NCBI RefSeq assembly: GCF_037975245.1 | Contig: NC_092580.1 | Location: 26,456,501 to 26,520,500 of the forward strand | DNA from: Apostichopus japonicus | Taxonomy: Eukaryota; Echinodermata; Holothuroidea; Aspidochirotida; Stichopodidae | DNA: 64,000 nucleotides | Direction of reading: 5' to 3' | Part shown: positions 1,440-55,740 of the stretch, in pieces | Position numbering within the stretch: position 1 is the first letter of the stretch | How the letters are laid out: every line of letters starts with the position of its first letter | Notes under the pieces: generated by a model | What the model was told of the DNA's origin: nothing | The model's input: the letters and a program-made list of their open reading frames with translations, nothing else | Databases searched by the model: none | Position numbers and translations under genes: made by a program

Positions 1440-3990
1440 TAAGAGACAAATCAAACACTGAACTGTCCCAATATCCATTGCTTAGTCTCCTATAGTATCA
1501 GTTCCGTATACTATATAAATTATAATATGCAATGACGTCAGTATTTGTTAACATTGTTTGATTTTGAGTTGGAAATTCCGACAACTTAAAATATCATGCT
1601 GGTGACCATGGAACGATGTAGGTCTCCTTCTCCAATTGAAGTAGAAAGGAATGCAAATTAATTAATATATATTTGGTAGCCTACCTCTTCATCTTGTGAG
1701 TGTTGTAACATGGAGGTATCATACGTGCATGCATATATGCATATTTATGTCGGCAAATGTAATGCTTTTCAAAATCACTTTACTACTTATGTATTGTGTC
1801 GTTTTATAATAGACAGAGTCCTTTGTCGTGTAAATCACATGGCACGCCTGGGCAATATCCATGGGCTCCCAGCTCAGATAATATTTATTTTCCTAGATTT
1901 ATAGCTTTTCCATTTTTGTTTGGTCACATATGGGTTCCCAAGTAGAACATTGTGCATGCACCATCCTATCCTTACTACACCCGTAGGACGCCTATGCATA
2001 TTCTATAACTTCATTGTTTGTGGCTCAAAACTTGCATCCTGTCAAGTCTTTCCATCAATTTTGTGGAAAGTAATATTTACCACAAACTGTAAGCAAAAGG
2101 ACATTAGTTCTTTTTTGCAACGTTAAGAGTAGAAACAAAACAGTTTCATATCTTAGCTTCATCCGCCCGCCTCAGCCCGTATATGTAACATTGTGCACTT
2201 GTGTTGAGGGGCGATGAGAGAAGGAGGGGAAAGCATTGCCCGTCCATTTCTCAATTGTATAGGTTGTTACTTCCTTCCATGTTCCAGAATGAGAACAGCT
2301 ATTAGCAGTTCTTTACTGTATAGAATCAGGAGTGTATGGAAGGAGTGGGAAGGGGAGGGGGGGGGGGTCAGGGAACATCCCTATAGATCCTGATAGATCT
2401 ACCGCCATAACATTGATTAACAATTGTCCCCAAGTGGAGTGAAGGCTCTAAGTTATCAAGTTTAGGTCCTAAGGTATTTTATCGAATCTTCTCGGACTTG
2501 ATGGAGAAGGGGTTTGAACGGGGAATGGGTTTGTGGTCCTTAGTAACACGGCATGGGCTATCTGATAAAACACTTACATTATGTTGAACCGTTACAATTT
2601 AAAACCGAGCAAACTAAAGAGTAAACGATTCTTCACTTCGACACCCTTTTTTTGCACCTCTCCTCGTCATCTCGCGATTAAAAGGCCAACTTGTGGCAAA
2701 TGAAACGAAATACACCTTTGCAAACTATGTATGCCTTTATTCGCCGCTTATTCAAGTTTTATGGCGTAGTCTACGAGCACGAGTTGCCCTTGGTTTGAGT
2801 ACGGGTTAGGTATATGATTTCAAGGCTTTTATCGACGAGTACAGGCTAGGCAAGAATAGTTGTACGAGAAACGGACTCATTACACAAGTCTCTTGTATTC
2901 CAATTGGAGCCAGGCAAAGTCAAATCATGATGAGTAAATGCGATGTTCATTAGTGACTTTACGGTGCTCTAAACTAAACTCCTTCAGGATTGTTTTCGTG
3001 ATAACAGCTAAGCCAAATAATTTCGTTGCTAGGATTTTGCTCAACGGTTGCTAAAGTTACAATAAAACAAGTTAAATTTAGGGACTTACGTAACCTAATA
3101 ATATGATCGATACGATTAACACGTTTGTACTACCATGGCAGTGAGTAATTTTGCGAAATCACTAAGTACAGAAAAAAGTTCAAAGACACTGTTTGGTTAG
3201 AGCTGCATGGGAAAAGGTTACATAATTAATGTTTAACTAAACTCTGCCACCAAAATTATCACTGTATGATTAGTACATAGTAGTTAGCAGTTGTTTGCAC
3301 ACGCATATCCTGGTATATAGAGGCACGCAGGGTATTACTACTACACATTTTAAATTGCCATCTTATAATGAAATGGTAATTAATTTGATGACATACGAAA
3401 CTGTTTCCATGGGAACTCGATCATTTGCCAAACATGGTGATATTTGATAACCACATATCTTGGGATAGAGCGTTGTAGGCTTTGAATCTAGTTGTAAATT
3501 TCAGGATAGGAATGTATTTTCTTGTCGGCCTGTCGCTTTCGGCATGGGCCCGGCGGGGTGGGTGTACTGAAACGAAGACGGTGGGGGAGGGGACACTCAG
3601 TCTGCCTGCTGTATATAAGGTAAACACAAGAGTTCGTGGGACGAGAGCACGCGCTGATACGTTTCTACCCCTATATAGAGGTCGATGAACTCACCGTGAA
3701 CACTGTTCAATAAGTATTGATTTCATACTTGGGCAACACATCAAACTATTTTTGTGTTTTTTCTTTGTACTGAAGCAATTACGACCCCTTTCGCTATTAT
3801 TAGCACTGTTTCATATTGATGAAGCACGTGAACATACCTTACAAACATAAGCGAAATCGATTCGTGCCAGTTGCATAATTATCCACGGTTATATTGTAGA
3901 ACTTTAGAAACGAAACATATGAAAATATATTAATTGAAAGTGCGGCAAGCGGTATGACAGATATACATATTAAATTAATATCGATCAACA
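1440..3990. other. intergenic sequence
   Basis: There is no recognisable coding exon and no transposon end in this stretch. A short G-run lies at 2357-2367. Upstream exons of the 4634-6139 gene could be here, but I cannot identify one. Confidence 0.4.
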
Positions 3991-3994
3991 CACC

Positions 3995-4130
3995 AGAAAA
4001 ATTCCACTTCACGACCGGTTTCGTTCTTTTGGGACTCATCAGTCGAAGGTAGGAATCGAACCACGGACCTTCGTGTCACAGAACTATAGAAGTCCGCACC
4101 ACTAAAGCACAGTGATTCTTCTGATGTGAA
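3995..4130 (-). repeat. tRNA-headed repeat carrying a hammerhead-like core
   Basis: On the minus strand a tRNA-like segment runs from about 4115, with an A-box-like GTGCTTTAGTGG and a perfect B box GGTTCGATTCC at about 4050-4060. It runs directly into a hammerhead-like core (4005-4042). The same two-part arrangement recurs on the minus strand at 37150-37255. It is not a functional tRNA gene: no clean acceptor stem can be drawn. It is most likely a SINE-like or retrozyme-like repeat. Confidence 0.6.
4005..4050 (-). ncRNA. hammerhead ribozyme-like motif (type I)
   Basis: Read on the minus strand: CTTCGA, then the core CTGATGA (4036-4042), a short helix II region, GAAA (4019-4022), CCGGTC (4013-4018) and GTGAAG. 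CTTC and GAAG can pair as helix I. Helix III would be minimal and cleavage would fall after the C of GGTC. Helix II carries one mismatch (GTCC against GAAC), so activity is uncertain. The core heptamer and GAAA are the invariant parts of the hammerhead family. Confidence 0.55.
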
Positions 4131-35559: not shown

Positions 35560-37140
35560 TAACGTAGTAGGGGTATGCTATACACTCAATACGGCCGAAT
35601 AATGTAGTGTATTGACCAAGGTGTACTTTTGGAATGACTGTGTAAAGAAGATTGATGGAATTTAGACATTCGATGAACCAAACGTAAATCAGTGGTCTAA
35701 GGGCACCATCCCGTATATTAATGTTCACTCACGCCATGATGTTGACCGTTCGCCAGTTTATGTAGACTTTATATGCATTATCATGCCACACTATATTACA
35801 CTTTTGATACAGGCATTGAAGACTCGCCCCAAACCGCGTGCCGCCCTCTGAAACAATGAAGTTTTCTCTTGTTGTCGCTACAAAATGCAGACAGTAATGA
35901 AACGTGATACCTTGTTATCTTTTATCTGGACCTGAGTTCAGGGAGTTCCATAACAACTCCCTGCTGACATGTCCATCGCTGCTATGTTCACTGTGTTGTG
36001 GGTATTGACCGTAGCTGTATGTATTGACTGTAAACACTAGTGTCTAATTACCGACGGTAGCAAGCTATGTGTGTATTTGATGGGATCGATGGTAGTGTCT
36101 AACACTTCTGTTGCACCACATTCGACACTAGGTCAGATTACCGGCATCAGACGTTTCTTTGTGCGAGAGTCATCACTCCCTTTAAGGATGTTGAAGAGGA
36201 TGAAATAAACTACTAATGGTTTGAAAATCAGGAGCATTGAATGTTTTAAGCGTATTGGAACCATATTGGTGAAACAGATAGAATCCGATGCGAGAAGTAC
36301 CACATAGGCTGGGGAGTACAGAATGCTAAAAATGTGTATGCCCTCTGTCTTGCTCAACATCTAAACGGTCATGTGGGTAAATTTGTGAGTGTTAGATAGT
36401 CCAAGTAATCAGCTGCTATTTCAAATGGTGGATATAGGACATGTCATGCTAACATCGTTATGGTGCTCTAGTAACCTTGGAAAGTGACGAATTTAGTCAA
36501 TGGCTGTTCCATCAAACTTCATTTTCAAAGCGCAAAGCCTTGTCCTAAATAGATAATATGCTAGTATTGAAAATCTCATCTTGTCTTTATTAATGGACCA
36601 ATAATTCTCTGTGTATCAGGACTTTTAAATTGATTATAAATGTTGTCAAGCGAAAAGGCAGAAAGATGTGAAACTCACACGTCACCTTTCACACCTGCTA
36701 TTCTAGGCCTATTATGTTCACTGCGTGTTGCAAAAGTGATCAATACATAGAAGTAGTATATAGGGCAAGTACATAATATAGTACACGCATAGGCCTATGC
36801 ATGTTGACTTACATTGTGTTGTTACTCGAGTTTCACGCCTGCACGGCGATCATCAGACAAACTGACGCCAAATGATCGTGGGACCTTATTTCCTTCTAGC
36901 ACGGATGTTTGGTCTCTTACCACGGCGATACTTTGGATGAGCTCAGTGTTTGTTCATACTGTCCTTCGTACGTAAAAGATTGCCAGCTTTTCTTCTACGC
37001 AGAGGTTGCACTGGCCTGATTCGCGTTTGTGTGTGTTCGATTCCTTTACTATCTCCCAACTTTATATTGTGGCTAAATCCCCTTCTTTCAGGTTCCATAC
37101 GTACTATGACCGTTCTGTTTAATATGGTACTTCTGTACCC
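35560..37140. other. intergenic, with one dispersed repeat
   Basis: The inverted partner of 22270-22490 lies at 35930-36145. Beyond that I see no exon, tRNA or transposon end. Confidence 0.4.
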
Positions 37141-37149
37141 AGAACAATT

Positions 37150-37255
37150 TCAACTTCACGACGGGTTCGTACTTTTGGGACTCATCATGCGAAGGTACGA
37201 ATCGAACCCCGGAACTTTGCATCACAGACCGAAGTCCGTAACACTCGACCGCAGT
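37150..37255 (-). repeat. tRNA-headed repeat with degenerate hammerhead core, second copy
   Basis: Minus-strand order is the same as at 3995-4130: a tRNA-like head with the B box GGTTCGATTCG, then CTTCGC, ATGATGAGTCCC and CGTCGTGAAG. Here the hammerhead core is damaged: CTGATGA has become ATGATGA and GAAA has become GAAC. It is likely inactive. Confidence 0.55.
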
Positions 37256-37344
37256 GTTGTTATTTAATAATTTAATATATATATCTGTCATACCACTTGT
37301 AATACACATTGATTTCTTATTTACGGCTTGGCTTGGGGAGCAGC

Positions 37345-39398: not shown

Positions 39399-39436
39399 GA
39401 TTATATACATATATATAGGCTATATATATATATATT

Positions 39437-39530
<94 letters not shown>
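39399..39530. repeat. (TA)n microsatellite
   Basis: A long AT dinucleotide tract that ends exactly where the inverted Penelope-like sequence begins. The Tyr-Ile ORFs are artefacts. Confidence 0.95.
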
Positions 39531-39531
<1 letters not shown>

Positions 39532-39536
39532 GGGGT

Positions 39537-40080
39537 TAAACCATGTGATTTTCCTGGTTCTTTTGTTCCTTTTCGTTGAGGCAGGCCGGGTTTCTGGTTC
39601 GAATCTGAGGTCGCAGTCGTAGCCACTTGAGATGAGCGCCTCTTTGTATGCTGGTGACGTTTCGTTGAATATGCTTTCTTTGCATGATAGGCTGCTTAAT
39701 CTCTTGTTTACGGCTGGGGGGATGTTCTTTATGATGCCTGGTGGGTGGTCCGAGTGTGAATGGATGAAGAGGGGGTTGTCGCCTGGTTTCCTGTAGTTCA
39801 CACACTTCCGCCCCGTCGTGGCTTCCCATAGTCACGTCGAACGAATTTTTGCTGTCCTTCTTGGTCCACGGGTTGGCGTCATTAAAGAGGATGGACTTTC
39901 TGGCGTGCATTATTACTGTGTGGTCGATGGCAGGAATGCTAACATAGGTTTTTGCCCAATTGAGGGCGTCGGTTAGGAGCTTTTCTGTGATTGACGGATA
40001 GAAATCGACTATGTCGAAGATCATGAAGGTTCGGTGGTGCTTATCCTTCAAGGATTTGAACCATTTGTCCTCTTGAACTA
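39537..40080 (-). pseudogene. Penelope-like element, inverted 5' part (RT fragment)
   Basis: On the minus strand the reading frame has FKSLKDKHHRTF and FDIVDFYPSITEKLL (reverse transcriptase motif A region), then FNDANPWTKKDS and DVTMGSHDGAEVCEL. After VCEL it jumps, through a CTACAG microhomology, into sequence matching 40320-40583 (frame YRKPGDNPLF), which deletes the YRDD catalytic region. VCEL in this inverted part is followed in the parental element by the LFILHN that opens the plus-strand part at 40090, so the two halves are adjacent in the parent. It is dead on its own. Confidence 0.8.
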
Positions 40081-41234
40081 GTTGTCCTCTTCATCTTACA
40101 CAATCTGAAGCAGCACCTTAACCCAGCTGATGTGGGCTTGTACCGTGATGACGGCCTGACCGCACTCAGGACCCGCTCGGGCCGATTAGCCGACATGAAA
40201 CGTAAAGAGGTCACTCAACTTTTCAACAAGTTTGGCCTGAAGGTCACCATCGAAACCAACCTGCAGGTAGTGAACTACTTAGACATCACAATGAACCTCG
40301 CCAACGGATCGTTCGCCCCCTACAGAAAACCAGGCGACAACCCCCTCTTCATCCATTCACACTCGGACCACCCACCAGGCATCATAAAGAACATCCCCCC
40401 AGCCGTAAACAAGAGATTAAGCAGCCTATCATGCAAAGAAAGCATATTCAACGAAACGTCACCAGCATACAAAGAGGCGCTCATCTCAAGTGGCTACGAC
40501 TGCGACCTCAGATTCGAACCAGAAACCCGGCCTGCCTCAACGAAAAGGAACAAAAGAACCAGGAAAATCACATGGTTTAACCCCCCATTTAGCAAAACTG
40601 TAAAGACAAACATCGGTAAAACTTTTCTGAAGTTAGTGGCCAAGCACTTTCCCCCAGGACACAGGCTGCATCAAATATTCAACAAAAATACCCTCAAATA
40701 AGCTACAGCTGCATGAGAAACGCAAAGGCTCTTATCAACAGCCACAATAAAAAAGTTCTTTCAAAGGCCGTTGAAAACCCACCCAACCATGGATGCAACT
40801 GCAGAATGCGAGAGACCTGCCCCCTCGGAGGAGAGTGCTTGACCCCTTCCATAGTATACAACGCTGAAGTGACTGCCGGGTATTCTAAGTCTATTTATAT
40901 TGGTATGTGCGGAGGGCAGTTCAAAACAAGGTTCAATAACCACAAAAAGTCGTTCAACCTGAAGAATTATCAAGGAGAGACTGAGCTTTCAAAACATGTT
41001 TGGTCTCTAAAAGAAAGCAATAGAGCCTTCCAAATCTCCTGGTCCATTGTCAGGAGATCAAACACATCGATCAACAGCTCAGGTTCTTGTAATCTATGCC
41101 AGGCCGAGAAACTAGCAATAATAGATCATTCTAGCCCTAATCTCCTGAACAAAAGGTCTGAAATCCTCGCAAGCTGCAGACACCAACCAAAACACCCCCA
41201 AAATAAAGTCAAGACTAAGATGAAAGAGAGATAG
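40075..41234 (+). pseudogene. Penelope-like element, RT thumb and GIY-YIG endonuclease
   Basis: Penelope-like elements encode a reverse transcriptase fused to a GIY-YIG nuclease. This copy starts within RT (VLFILHNLKQ), has motif C as YRDDG (about 40141-40155) and the downstream NYLDITMNL and YRKPGDNPLF blocks. The C-rich linker is CNCRMRETCPLGGEC (about 40797-40840) and the nuclease is SIYIGMCGGQFKTRFNNH with CNLCQAEKLAI. A one-base loss near 40699 shifts the frame between the parts (first ORF 40132-40701, second 40713-41234). The N-terminal RT is missing from this strand and lies inverted to the left. The copy is flanked by (TA)n on both sides and followed by a hammerhead motif. Confidence 0.9.
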
Positions 41235-41245
41235 CTTTTTAGTAC

Positions 41246-41289
41246 ACCTCCTGACGATTGCTAGTAAGCATGAAACTCTGAGTAGAGGT
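41246..41289 (+). ncRNA. type I hammerhead ribozyme after the Penelope-like ORF
   Basis: All parts are present in order: helix I strand ACCTC (41246-41250), core CTGACGA (41251-41257; the variable position is C), helix II TTGCT-AGT-AAGCA (41258-41270), GAAA (41272-41275), a minimal helix III C41276-G41282, cleavage triplet GTA (41282-41284) and the second helix I strand GAGGT (41285-41289), which pairs fully with ACCTC. Hammerheads with very short helix III are known from Penelope-like elements. The position 12 bp after the stop codon fits that. Confidence 0.85.
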
Positions 41290-41379
41290 TTGGCTGCAAA
41301 ATTCAAAATTTACATTACGCTCTTCTTCATAACGCGGAATTGAGCACTCTGTCGTGTTCTACTTGGAACATTTTATACA

Positions 41380-41452
<73 letters not shown>

Positions 41453-54796: not shown

Positions 54797-55060
54797 ATGT
54801 ATGTATGTATGTATGTGTGTATGTATATTAGATCCTCCTGCAAGCAGGAACTCGCGAAGAAGCCTCATTGGCTTATCAAAGCCGCAAGCTGACCGAAGTC
54901 AGTCTCTTACATTCATATTAAACGTCCATGATTATGAATTGTTAATTGTCAACAACTCTGTAACTGGACGACATACATTAATCTGGGAGTGACTCGAACC
55001 GGGGACCTTGTGATTGAAAGGCACCGGCGTTAACCACTGAGATAACTCTCCAAAAATGTC
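54797..55060 (-). repeat. tRNA-derived SINE
   Basis: On the minus strand it starts with a tRNA-like head: A box TATCTCAGTGGTTAA and B box GGTTCGAGTC, with loop GCCTTTCAATCAC. A body with GACTTCGGTCAGCTTGCGGC follows, and it ends in a (TACA)n-like tail (54797-54830). The length, about 260 bp, is normal for a SINE. It is a different family from the hammerhead-bearing repeats. Confidence 0.75.
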
Positions 55061-55740
55061 AGAATGTTAGAAGCATACCCCATAAAAGTTGGGTTGTCCT
55101 TGAGAAAAAGACAGGGGAAATTCGCAGTGCATACTGCACCTGATTTGCAGGGTGAGTGTATATTTCATTCAGACCAATATTAATTCACATATTGACTATA
55201 TGTGTCCTCCTTAATTATCCCCAATAACTTCGTTGTCATAAGCTGTAGGCCCTTATGGATTTTGTTATTTTTGAAAGAAGCAATGTAGGGAATTTGGAGT
55301 TATGGTAATGAGGTAGAGATTTTAGAACTTTCACAGATACATATACCCTCCCAATCCGCTTATTAACTCCATCAATGTCATGTCCAATTATAACTTTTGC
55401 GCTATGTACTACATGTGTCTTAGATTTTATAAATCATTATGTCACCAATGGGCACACATCATGCCTTCAAGGTCAAGGGGTTCTAACCATGGGTACAGTA
55501 GCATATTTTTTTTTAATTTGTCCTTTTGAATCAGAAATTTATATGTACCCATAAATGTTTAGAAGTGAATATAAAGTCCTGATCATGATTTACGCCTACA
55601 TCCTTTTTAATGCTCTTCAAAAAATTTCCCGGAACACGACTTCTTCGAGAAAATCCTGGACTTGCACTTGAGAACTACAAATCATTTCTCTTATATTCAT
55701 TGCTAATTTTTTCTCCTTTCTTTTCCTATTTTCCATTGAC

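What the first reader, a model, noticed from the sequence alone, without database searches (positions are those of the whole stretch)
3995..4130. tRNA-like head joined to a hammerhead core in a short repeat
Two copies (here and 37150-37255) have the same order: B-box tRNA-like head, then CTTCG, (C)TGATGAGTCCC and CGTGAAG. A SINE-like or retrozyme-like family that pairs a Pol III-type head with a self-cleaving motif would be unusual. The first copy keeps CTGATGA and GAAA; both copies share a helix II mismatch at the same position, which could be ancestral. This is my best candidate for an undescribed unit.
Basis: partly seen in the sequence, partly recalled or inferred. Interest (0 to 1): 0.75.

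Follow-up and report, generated by a model that had tools for sequence, protein, structure and literature searches.

The report
Promoter-headed hammerhead repeat, Penelope-like insertions
A short mobile DNA repeat in this genome joins a tRNA-type promoter to a self-cutting RNA motif, and its copies bear the marks of insertion by Penelope-type retrotransposons, which speaks to the open question of what moves such self-cutting repeats.

Summary
On the minus strand, two decayed copies (79.7% identical over 123 bp) carry an A-box-like stretch, a B box and a type I hammerhead (HHR) core in fixed order. They belong to a large family: CTGATGAGTCCC occurs 538 times genome-wide against 13 for the reversed control. 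The unit is 341 bp; its consensus HHR is intact. The shared helix II mismatch is not ancestral: the consensus reads GTCC/GGAC. Helix III (ACC/GGU, no loop) forms fully only in a dimer. The outer strand of helix I is the 3' half of the B box.

Copies show a Penelope-like element (PLE) insertion signature: partial head-to-tail tandems, seats in (TA)n arrays, two favoured 3' ends about 33 bp apart, and two-sided insertions that are head-to-head (43, against 1 tail-to-tail within 800 bp). The 4 PLE 3' ends fetched also end in (TA)n.

A tRNA head plus HHR is not new: schistosome Sm-alpha has it. New, as far as my searches go, are a head without cloverleaf fused into helix I, and genomic evidence that PLE machinery moves such a repeat. 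Cleavage, Pol III transcription and RNA circles are untested.

The parts
3925..4128 (-). Copy a of the 341-bp unit (unit positions about 146-341), 5'-truncated
   Evidence: BLASTN with unit sequences from other loci: 4128..3925 at 83-84%; as L089, positions 146-344 of a 345-base query, 84%
4099..4109 (-). A-box-like TGCTTTAGTGG (one mismatch to TRGYNNANNNG, a recalled consensus; family consensus TGGTCGAGTGG fits it)
   Evidence: Sequence; consensus position 165
4052..4062 (-). B box GGTTCGATTCC, exact; its 3' half GATTCC is the 5' strand of outer helix I
4000..4057 (-). Type I hammerhead, copy a: outer helix I GATTCC/GGAATT, CTGATGA, helix II with one mismatch, GAA, helix III ACC/GGU; predicted cut between 4013 and 4012
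   Evidence: Rfam HH9 32.1 bits, E 0.00039, below gathering 52; dimer fold of the family consensus
37139..37256 (-). Copy b, main piece (unit positions 160-278), decayed head and hammerhead
   Evidence: BLASTN 85-87% to three unit sequences; HH9 19.4 bits, E 4.7
37254..37335 (+). Inverted 3' piece of the same family (unit positions about 280-341 and some bases beyond the joint), head-to-head with copy b
37198..37208 (-). B box of copy b, GGTTCGATTCG (one mismatch)
37241..37251 (-). A-box-like CGGTCGAGTGT of copy b (two mismatches)
   Evidence: Sequence
39525..41381 (.). PLE copy (RT and GIY-YIG pieces, named by eye): minus-strand half 39525..about 40062, plus-strand half about 40062-41381, head-to-head, (TA)n on both outer sides; the outer end of the minus half lies inside the ORF, not at the PLE 3' end
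   Evidence: Inverted 272-bp repeat at 99.3%; ORFs; (TA)n at 39402-39529 and 41382-41448; joint placed from the ORFs, not mapped
41251..41285 (+). A different hammerhead-like motif just 3' of the GIY-YIG ORF (by eye)
   Evidence: same motif in L123, with one core base changed in L125; not listed by Rfam at E up to 10

Best explanation
The repeat is a non-autonomous retroelement of the metazoan retrozyme kind. Its 341-nt unit carries a tRNA-type Pol III promoter (A box, B box) fused to a minimal type I hammerhead, and it is copied into (TA)n arrays by the reverse transcriptase/GIY-YIG endonuclease of resident Penelope-like elements. Proposed cycle: (1) the unit is transcribed, from the internal Pol III promoter and/or from outside; (2) two hammerheads pair through ACCGGU and cut multimers, and unit RNAs may be closed to circles; (3) a PLE protein nicks both strands of a TA array and starts reverse transcription on unit RNA at one of two sites (unit position about 308 or about 334-341) from both sides; (4) it reads round a circular or multimeric RNA, giving partial head-to-tail tandems with ragged 5' ends, and the two cDNAs meet 5' to 5'. 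Shown by sequence: anatomy, tandems, favoured 3' ends, (TA)n seats, head-to-head rule, PLEs at the same kind of site. Inferred: transcription, cleavage, circles and the identity of the helper.
For: HHR: Hammerhead_1 at or above gathering in 13 of 20 family loci given, 17 hits; in a dimer cofold both strands form the HHR with intermolecular helix III, -38.9 kcal/mol against -17.4 for one monomer. Promoter: degenerate A box in 82 and exact B box in 72 of 101 copies; an A+B pair at tRNA spacing arose once in 200,000 random 341-mers, one strand; the boxes vary less than the flanks (p 0.008). Tandems: 34 joints 341->1 in 33 of 106 loci, 21 of them with no base lost or gained. 3' ends: 61 of 154 at 300-312, 43 at 328-341, 50 elsewhere; 5' ends scattered. 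(TA)n: 85 of 123 clusters on at least one side against 62 of 2935 background windows. Two-sided copies: 43 head-to-head, 0 tail-to-tail within 45 bp, 43 to 1 within 800 bp. PLE precedent, from passages: tail of 30-40 bp, AT-rich cutting, both strands cut and extended (PMC11167929); partial tandems, head-to-head inverted repeats and a gene copied in trans between pLTRs (PMC3846280). PLEs here: 4 of 4 fetched 3' ends (of 150 matches) run into (TA)n. Heads near PLEs: 3 of 133 within 2.5 kb, 0.14 expected.
Against: A run of exactly five T, a strong Pol III stop (recalled), follows the HHR in 76 of 94 matched places, four or more in 88, so a Pol III transcript should end before either favoured 3' end; the promoter alone cannot explain the inserted RNA. 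Only 1 of 117 free 5' ends lies within 3 nt of the predicted cleavage site, so cleaved linear RNA is not a visible template. Covariation is thin: 6 double changes and 89 broken cells in 1814. The unselected part of the HHR varies less than the flanks in the 37 less biased hits (p 0.003) but not clearly in all 101 (p 0.11). 7 of 20 loci have no gathering-level HHR. The HHR of the repeat differs from the motifs of the PLEs, which Rfam did not list in the window, and PLE coding pieces lie in only 2 of 106 loci. 3' ends at 308 and 334-341 fall where the unit's own TATAT or TTA meets a TA array, so the ends are blurred, and some TA may have grown from the element's own end. 10 of 43 two-sided copies have no TA run at either side, nor has window copy a or b. 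Nematostella HHR repeats were reported with LINE-like 15-bp TSDs (PMC4918200, passage). No RNA data.
Confidence: 0.72

Rival explanations
1. An ordinary SINE of the Sm-alpha kind: Pol III transcript, moved by a LINE, the hammerhead a passenger.
For: A and B boxes at tRNA spacing; S. mansoni Sm-alpha is tRNA-derived with an HHR (PMC2770079, passages); LINE-like TSDs noted for Nematostella HHR repeats (PMC4918200, passage).
Against: No tRNA cloverleaf; five T inside the unit; seats in TA arrays, two favoured 3' ends, head-to-head pairs and 341-bp tandems are not usual LINE/SINE habits (recalled).
Confidence: 0.1
2. The unit is the pseudo-LTR of an autonomous PLE family, not a free element.
For: Minimal dimer-type HHR, tandems, tail and inversions are PLE traits; PLE pieces occasionally lie beside it.
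Against: PLE coding pieces in 2 of 106 loci; the 4 PLE 3' ends fetched and that of the window carry another motif; units follow one another directly without an ORF. PLE families too diverged for the four window queries could be missed, and most loci reach only about 1 kb from the core.
Confidence: 0.13
3. A satellite-type repeat spread by recombination and segmental duplication; head and hammerhead are relics.
For: A local segmental array at C1:12.10-12.12 Mb carries the unit without RT; the window copies are decayed.
Against: Listed places lie on C1 to C22 with variable 5' truncation; the consensus HHR is intact; head+core hits have a median 93.7% identity to the consensus.
Confidence: 0.04

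Closest known systems
Schistosome Sm-alpha / Sj-alpha SINE-like repeats
   Same: tRNA-type head (reported for Sm-alpha) plus type I HHR in a short noncoding repeat; the Sm-alpha-like element W36.2_W001 is 335 bp, here 341 (PMC8490949, PMC2770079, passages). Loop and helix II look alike (recalled).
   Different: Sm-alpha yields 2,368 tRNA-Gln predictions, nearly all classed as SINE (PMC2770079, passage); here only A and B boxes remain and the B box is part of HHR helix I. A head-to-head, TA-seated insertion pattern is not mentioned in the passages I saw. Sequence homology was not testable here.
Metazoan non-LTR retrozymes
   Same: Type I HHR, noncoding unit of 150-450 bp, tandem copies, coexistence with PLEs (PMC7229834, abstract and sections 13, 15, 17)
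   Different: Among metazoan HHR repeats a tRNA was noted only for schistosomes (PMC4918200, passage); here a promoter-like head. circRNA not tested.
Penelope-like elements
   Same: Partial tandems, optional 3' tail, head-to-head inversions, AT-rich target (PMC11167929, PMC3846280, passages); minimal dimer-type HHR (PMC7761336, passage)
   Different: No RT or GIY-YIG ORF in the unit; HHR of another sequence than the motif of the PLEs seen here
Newt and axolotl satellite retrozymes (HHR_Amex1)
   Same: Helix III of one pair capped by a palindromic tetraloop, efficient as a dimer (PMC7229834 section 15); here A-CCGG-U
   Different: 330-350-bp amphibian satellites; a tRNA head is not mentioned in the section read

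Membership tests
Hammerhead ribozyme, type I | Intact core CUGANGA..GAA..A-UH with three helices, helix I open | tested here: met
   Consensus intact; 81 of 101 copies keep the core; Hammerhead_1 at gathering in 13 of 20 loci. The window copies alone: below gathering
Hammerhead ribozyme, type I | Self-cleavage | not testable with these tools
   No RNA assay
Metazoan retrozyme | Noncoding 150-450-bp unit with type I HHR, tandem copies | tested here: met
   341-bp unit, 34 head-to-tail joints in 33 of 106 loci
Metazoan retrozyme | Circular RNA of unit length | not testable with these tools
   No RNA data
tRNA-derived SINE (Sm-alpha type) | A and B boxes at tRNA spacing | tested here: met
   Consensus A box at 165, B box at 208
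tRNA-derived SINE (Sm-alpha type) | Recognisable tRNA fold in the head | tested here: not met
   No tRNA hit on the head at E up to 0.1 in 6 loci nor at gathering in 20; the two tRNA hits there lie elsewhere
tRNA-derived SINE (Sm-alpha type) | Pol III transcription of the whole inserted unit | tested here: inconclusive
   Five T inside the unit in 76 of 94 places argues against; no RNA data
PLE (autonomous or its pLTR) | RT + GIY-YIG ORF linked to the repeat | tested here: not met
   2 of 106 loci hold PLE coding pieces
PLE-type integration | Partial tandems, optional 30-40-bp tail, head-to-head inversions, AT-rich target | tested here: met
   against PMC11167929 and PMC3846280 passages
PLE-type integration | A PLE protein uses the unit RNA | not testable with these tools
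   No biochemical assay

The most novel reading that the evidence does not exclude
A retrozyme with its own Pol III promoter, in which the B box doubles as the outer strand of hammerhead helix I (so promoter and ribozyme are one conserved module), is replicated through circular or multimeric RNA by a PLE protein that primes on both nicked strands of a TA array and runs round the template. It would be a natural trans substrate showing how PLEs and retrozymes work together.
Probability: 0.35. Interest if true: 0.75.

Novelty: new variant of a known kind. Interest (0 to 1): 0.55.

Why it matters
What moves metazoan retrozymes is open: PMC7229834 (discussion read) names PLEs only as a strong candidate, and PMC7761336 (passage) says that the repeats show no conserved motif pointing to a helper. 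This family gives a footprint (two favoured 3' ends, TA seats, a head-to-head rule, tandems continuing past the hammerhead) that can be compared with PLE footprints in the same genome, and a short RNA that can be offered to a purified PLE protein.

Tried and rejected
Rejected: an ancestral helix II mismatch; the segmental array L069/L070 as an autonomous element (no match to the PLE queries; its three long ORFs look by eye like antisense reads of the unit and low-complexity sequence); viral contigs as a source of relatives. Three B-box+HHR matches in IMG/VR (L119-L121) look by eye like tRNA genes followed by CTGATGAGTCCGT, not this family. Several other Rfam hits in the window lie on (TA)n. 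The idea that copies begin at the cleavage site failed (1 of 117). I did not identify the host species; the size and number of its contigs do not fit a schistosome (recalled, not tested).

Biases: 78 of 106 loci were fetched through exact CTGATGAGTCCC, so conservation of those 12 bases is by selection; one search repeats the test on 37 hits from 28 of the 30 loci of the similarity search, which favours copies like window copy a. Positions in one subfamily are not independent. Rows dropped before counts: 12 overlapping or near-identical loci; L018, L022, L033 and L060 have no family match. Related pairs remain among the two-sided loci, such as L113/L114 (98.8% over 997 bp) and L066/L095 (94.0% over 1113 bp). 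One search used 116 loci with duplicates kept. One search used 107 sequences (105 fetched loci without L089, plus two window stretches). One search used 133 head places (91 of the 100 listed, plus 42 from then on later contigs; tandem neighbours left out) and 147 of the 150 PLE places. PLE 3' ends: 4 picked of 150.

Full report
What is in the window. Both copies lie on the minus strand. They align at 79.7% over 123 bp. Read 5' to 3', each has an A-box-like stretch, a B box, CTTCG, the hammerhead core and CGTGAAG. Rfam finds no gathering-level match in the window; with open thresholds the hammerhead matches are HH9, 32.1 bits for copy a and 19.4 for copy b. In the window alone the core pattern is barely above chance.

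The family. In the window's own 671.6-Mb assembly, CTGATGAGTCCC occurs 538 times and its reversed control 13 times; a similarity search with copy a had 945 first-look candidates, 40 scored, 46 matches. I fetched 118 loci, 106 after dropping 12 overlapping or near-identical ones; 4 of the 106 (L018, L022, L033, L060) hold no family member. The unit is 341 bp: TTTACGGCTTGG ... TTAACACACCAG ... A box 165 ... B box 208 ... CTGATGA 228 ... ACCGGTC 251 ... GGAATTTTT 265 ... CTGGTGTGTT 275 ... ACTATATAT 300 ... TCTTA 337-341. The inverted pair AACACACCAG/CTGGTGTGTT brackets head and hammerhead; that 145-nt module folds 4.3 standard deviations below dinucleotide shuffles.

The ribozyme. The consensus core is intact, and helix II is GTCC/GGAC with loop CAAAA. 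Copies a and b carry different bases at the same helix II position, so the mismatch is not ancestral. Helix III is ACC/GGU with no loop: whole only between two molecules, or one A-U pair over CCGG. In a cofold of two copies each strand forms the hammerhead with a shared helix III. Outer helix I pairs GATTCC, the 3' half of the B box, with GGAATT: promoter box and ribozyme share bases. 81 of 101 copies keep the core, and 46 of 101 keep core, A box and B box together. Hammerhead_1 reaches gathering in 13 of 20 loci given. Covariation is thin, 6 double changes in 1814 cells, with 89 broken; the copies are all from one genome.

The head. It fits TRGYNNANNNG and GGTTCGANTCC (recalled box consensuses) at tRNA spacing; among 200,000 random 341-mers of like dinucleotides one had such a pair on the strand tested. 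The boxes vary less than the flanks (p 0.008 in all 101; 0.009 in the 37 less biased), and less than the stretch between them only weakly (p 0.04 and 0.08); the unselected HHR part against the flanks gives p 0.11 and 0.003. There is no tRNA fold. Five T follow the hammerhead in 76 of 94 places: a Pol III transcript would end there, before both favoured 3' ends. So the head may make a short RNA of about 120 nt, or be read through; it does not by itself explain the inserted RNA.

Head and core together. In 193 hits, 105 have both, 26 have the core with the head cut by 5' truncation, 6 have the head with the core lost, and 56 neither. Genome-wide, 176 exact heads exist and 110 are followed within 30-60 bases by exact CTGATGA. 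In fetched loci 34 of 39 exact heads have exact CTGATGA; of the other 5, two read CTGAGGA, two have one changed core base and one is rearranged.

Insertion marks. (i) Head-to-tail joints 341->1: 34 in 33 of 106 loci, 21 without a base lost or gained; several arrays run on through a hammerhead. (ii) 5' ends are scattered; only 1 of 117 is within 3 nt of the cut site. A PLE studied in vitro also used mainly unprocessed RNA (PMC11167929, passage). (iii) Of 154 free 3' ends, 61 lie at 300-312 (48 at exactly 308), 43 at 328-341 and 50 elsewhere; ends in TA arrays are blurred by a few bases. (iv) 85 of 123 clusters (116 loci, duplicates kept) have a (TA)n run in the 60-bp flank on at least one side, against 62 of 2935 background windows; in one-orientation copies 50 of 69 have it on the 3' side and 28 of 69 on the 5' side, and 46 of 69 end at a favoured 3' end. 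(v) Of 112 clusters in 107 sequences, 43 are two-sided, and all 43 are head-to-head with 3' ends outward. Both outer ends are at a favoured 3' end in 21 of 43 and one is in 17; TA lies on both sides in 20, one side in 13, neither in 10. Joining over gaps up to 800 bp, which would catch pairs split by a TA array, gives 43 head-to-head to 1 tail-to-tail. Window copy b is one of the 43.

Why PLEs. Published PLE traits, from passages: partial tandems and an optional 30-40-bp tail between two start sites, cutting at AT-rich DNA, both strands cut and extended (PMC11167929); head-to-head inverted repeats as the most frequent form, a 31-bp tail, and a host gene copied in trans between pLTRs (PMC3846280). 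This family shows the same set. In this genome a PLE GIY-YIG query gave 150 matches, 150 scored of 822 candidates; the 4 PLE 3' ends I could fetch, two of them of one family, run into (TA)n and carry a hammerhead-like motif of another sequence, with one core base changed in L125. Those motifs were recognised by eye; Rfam did not list the window ones at E up to 10. The window PLE at 39525-41381 looks head-to-head between two TA arrays, though the outer end of its minus half is internal to the ORF. Three of 133 heads lie within 2.5 kb of a PLE match where 0.14 is expected by shifting, 0 of 2000 shifts reaching 3. The unit is not simply a PLE's pLTR: PLE coding pieces occur in 2 of 106 loci.

What is known. 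HHR-bearing SINE-like repeats: Sm-alpha and Sj-alpha of schistosomes, Sm-alpha with a tRNA-Gln-derived part (PMC2770079 and PMC8490949, passages). PMC4918200 (passage) names schistosomes as the exception with a full tRNA among metazoan HHR repeats. Metazoan retrozymes, and the proposal that PLEs move them: PMC7229834 (abstract, sections 13, 15, 17). A search for papers holding hammerhead, SINE, B box and polymerase III gave one, a centromere review whose passages only cite satellite HHRs; 'hammerhead' with 'tRNA-derived SINE' gave one, on the genetic code, seen only in the listing. Further searches are. The library lacks most subscription papers; PMC4209133 (PLE hammerheads) and PMC2933863 are not held, and I did not look up the original Sm-alpha paper. 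So absence from print is claimed only for these searches.

Verdict. A real, large family; the combination is known in kind; the fused promoter-ribozyme module and the PLE-type footprint make it a new variant. Cleavage, transcription, circles and the helper's identity remain to be shown.

Noticed in passing
window 41251-41285 (+), 36856-36822 (-); L011 about 1201 (+); L122, L123, L124, L125: A second kind of hammerhead-like motif, about CTGANGA..GAAACYC-N-GRGTW, with a self-complementary helix III, near PLE coding ends; recognised by eye, broken by one base in L125, not listed by Rfam in the window. Membership of the published PLE hammerheads is recalled, not tested.
   Followed up: partly
window 36822-37139 (-): A decayed PLE 3' end (GIY-YIG tail and hammerhead-like motif) follows copy b closely on the same strand, as if reverse transcription had jumped from PLE RNA to unit RNA. 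A similar order is seen by coordinates alone at C11:9662024/9661156.
   Followed up: partly
window about 54960-55070 (-): Another tRNA-like head, GTTATCTCAGTGGTTAACGCC...GGTTCGAGTC, with no hammerhead core in the 30 bases shown after it.
   Followed up: no
L023 992-1195; L028 1591-1825: Shortened tandem units of about 114 and 157 bp that keep the hammerhead but have lost the head.
   Followed up: no
L069, L070 (C1:12.10-12.12 Mb): Segmental array of about 5.3-kb blocks at 99% identity, each carrying the unit and no match to the PLE queries.
   Followed up: partly
L120, L121 (IMG/VR contigs): tRNA-like genes followed within about 20 bases by CTGATGAGTCCGTAGGGACGAAAC, a hammerhead-like motif beside a tRNA in viral contigs (by eye).
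   Followed up: no
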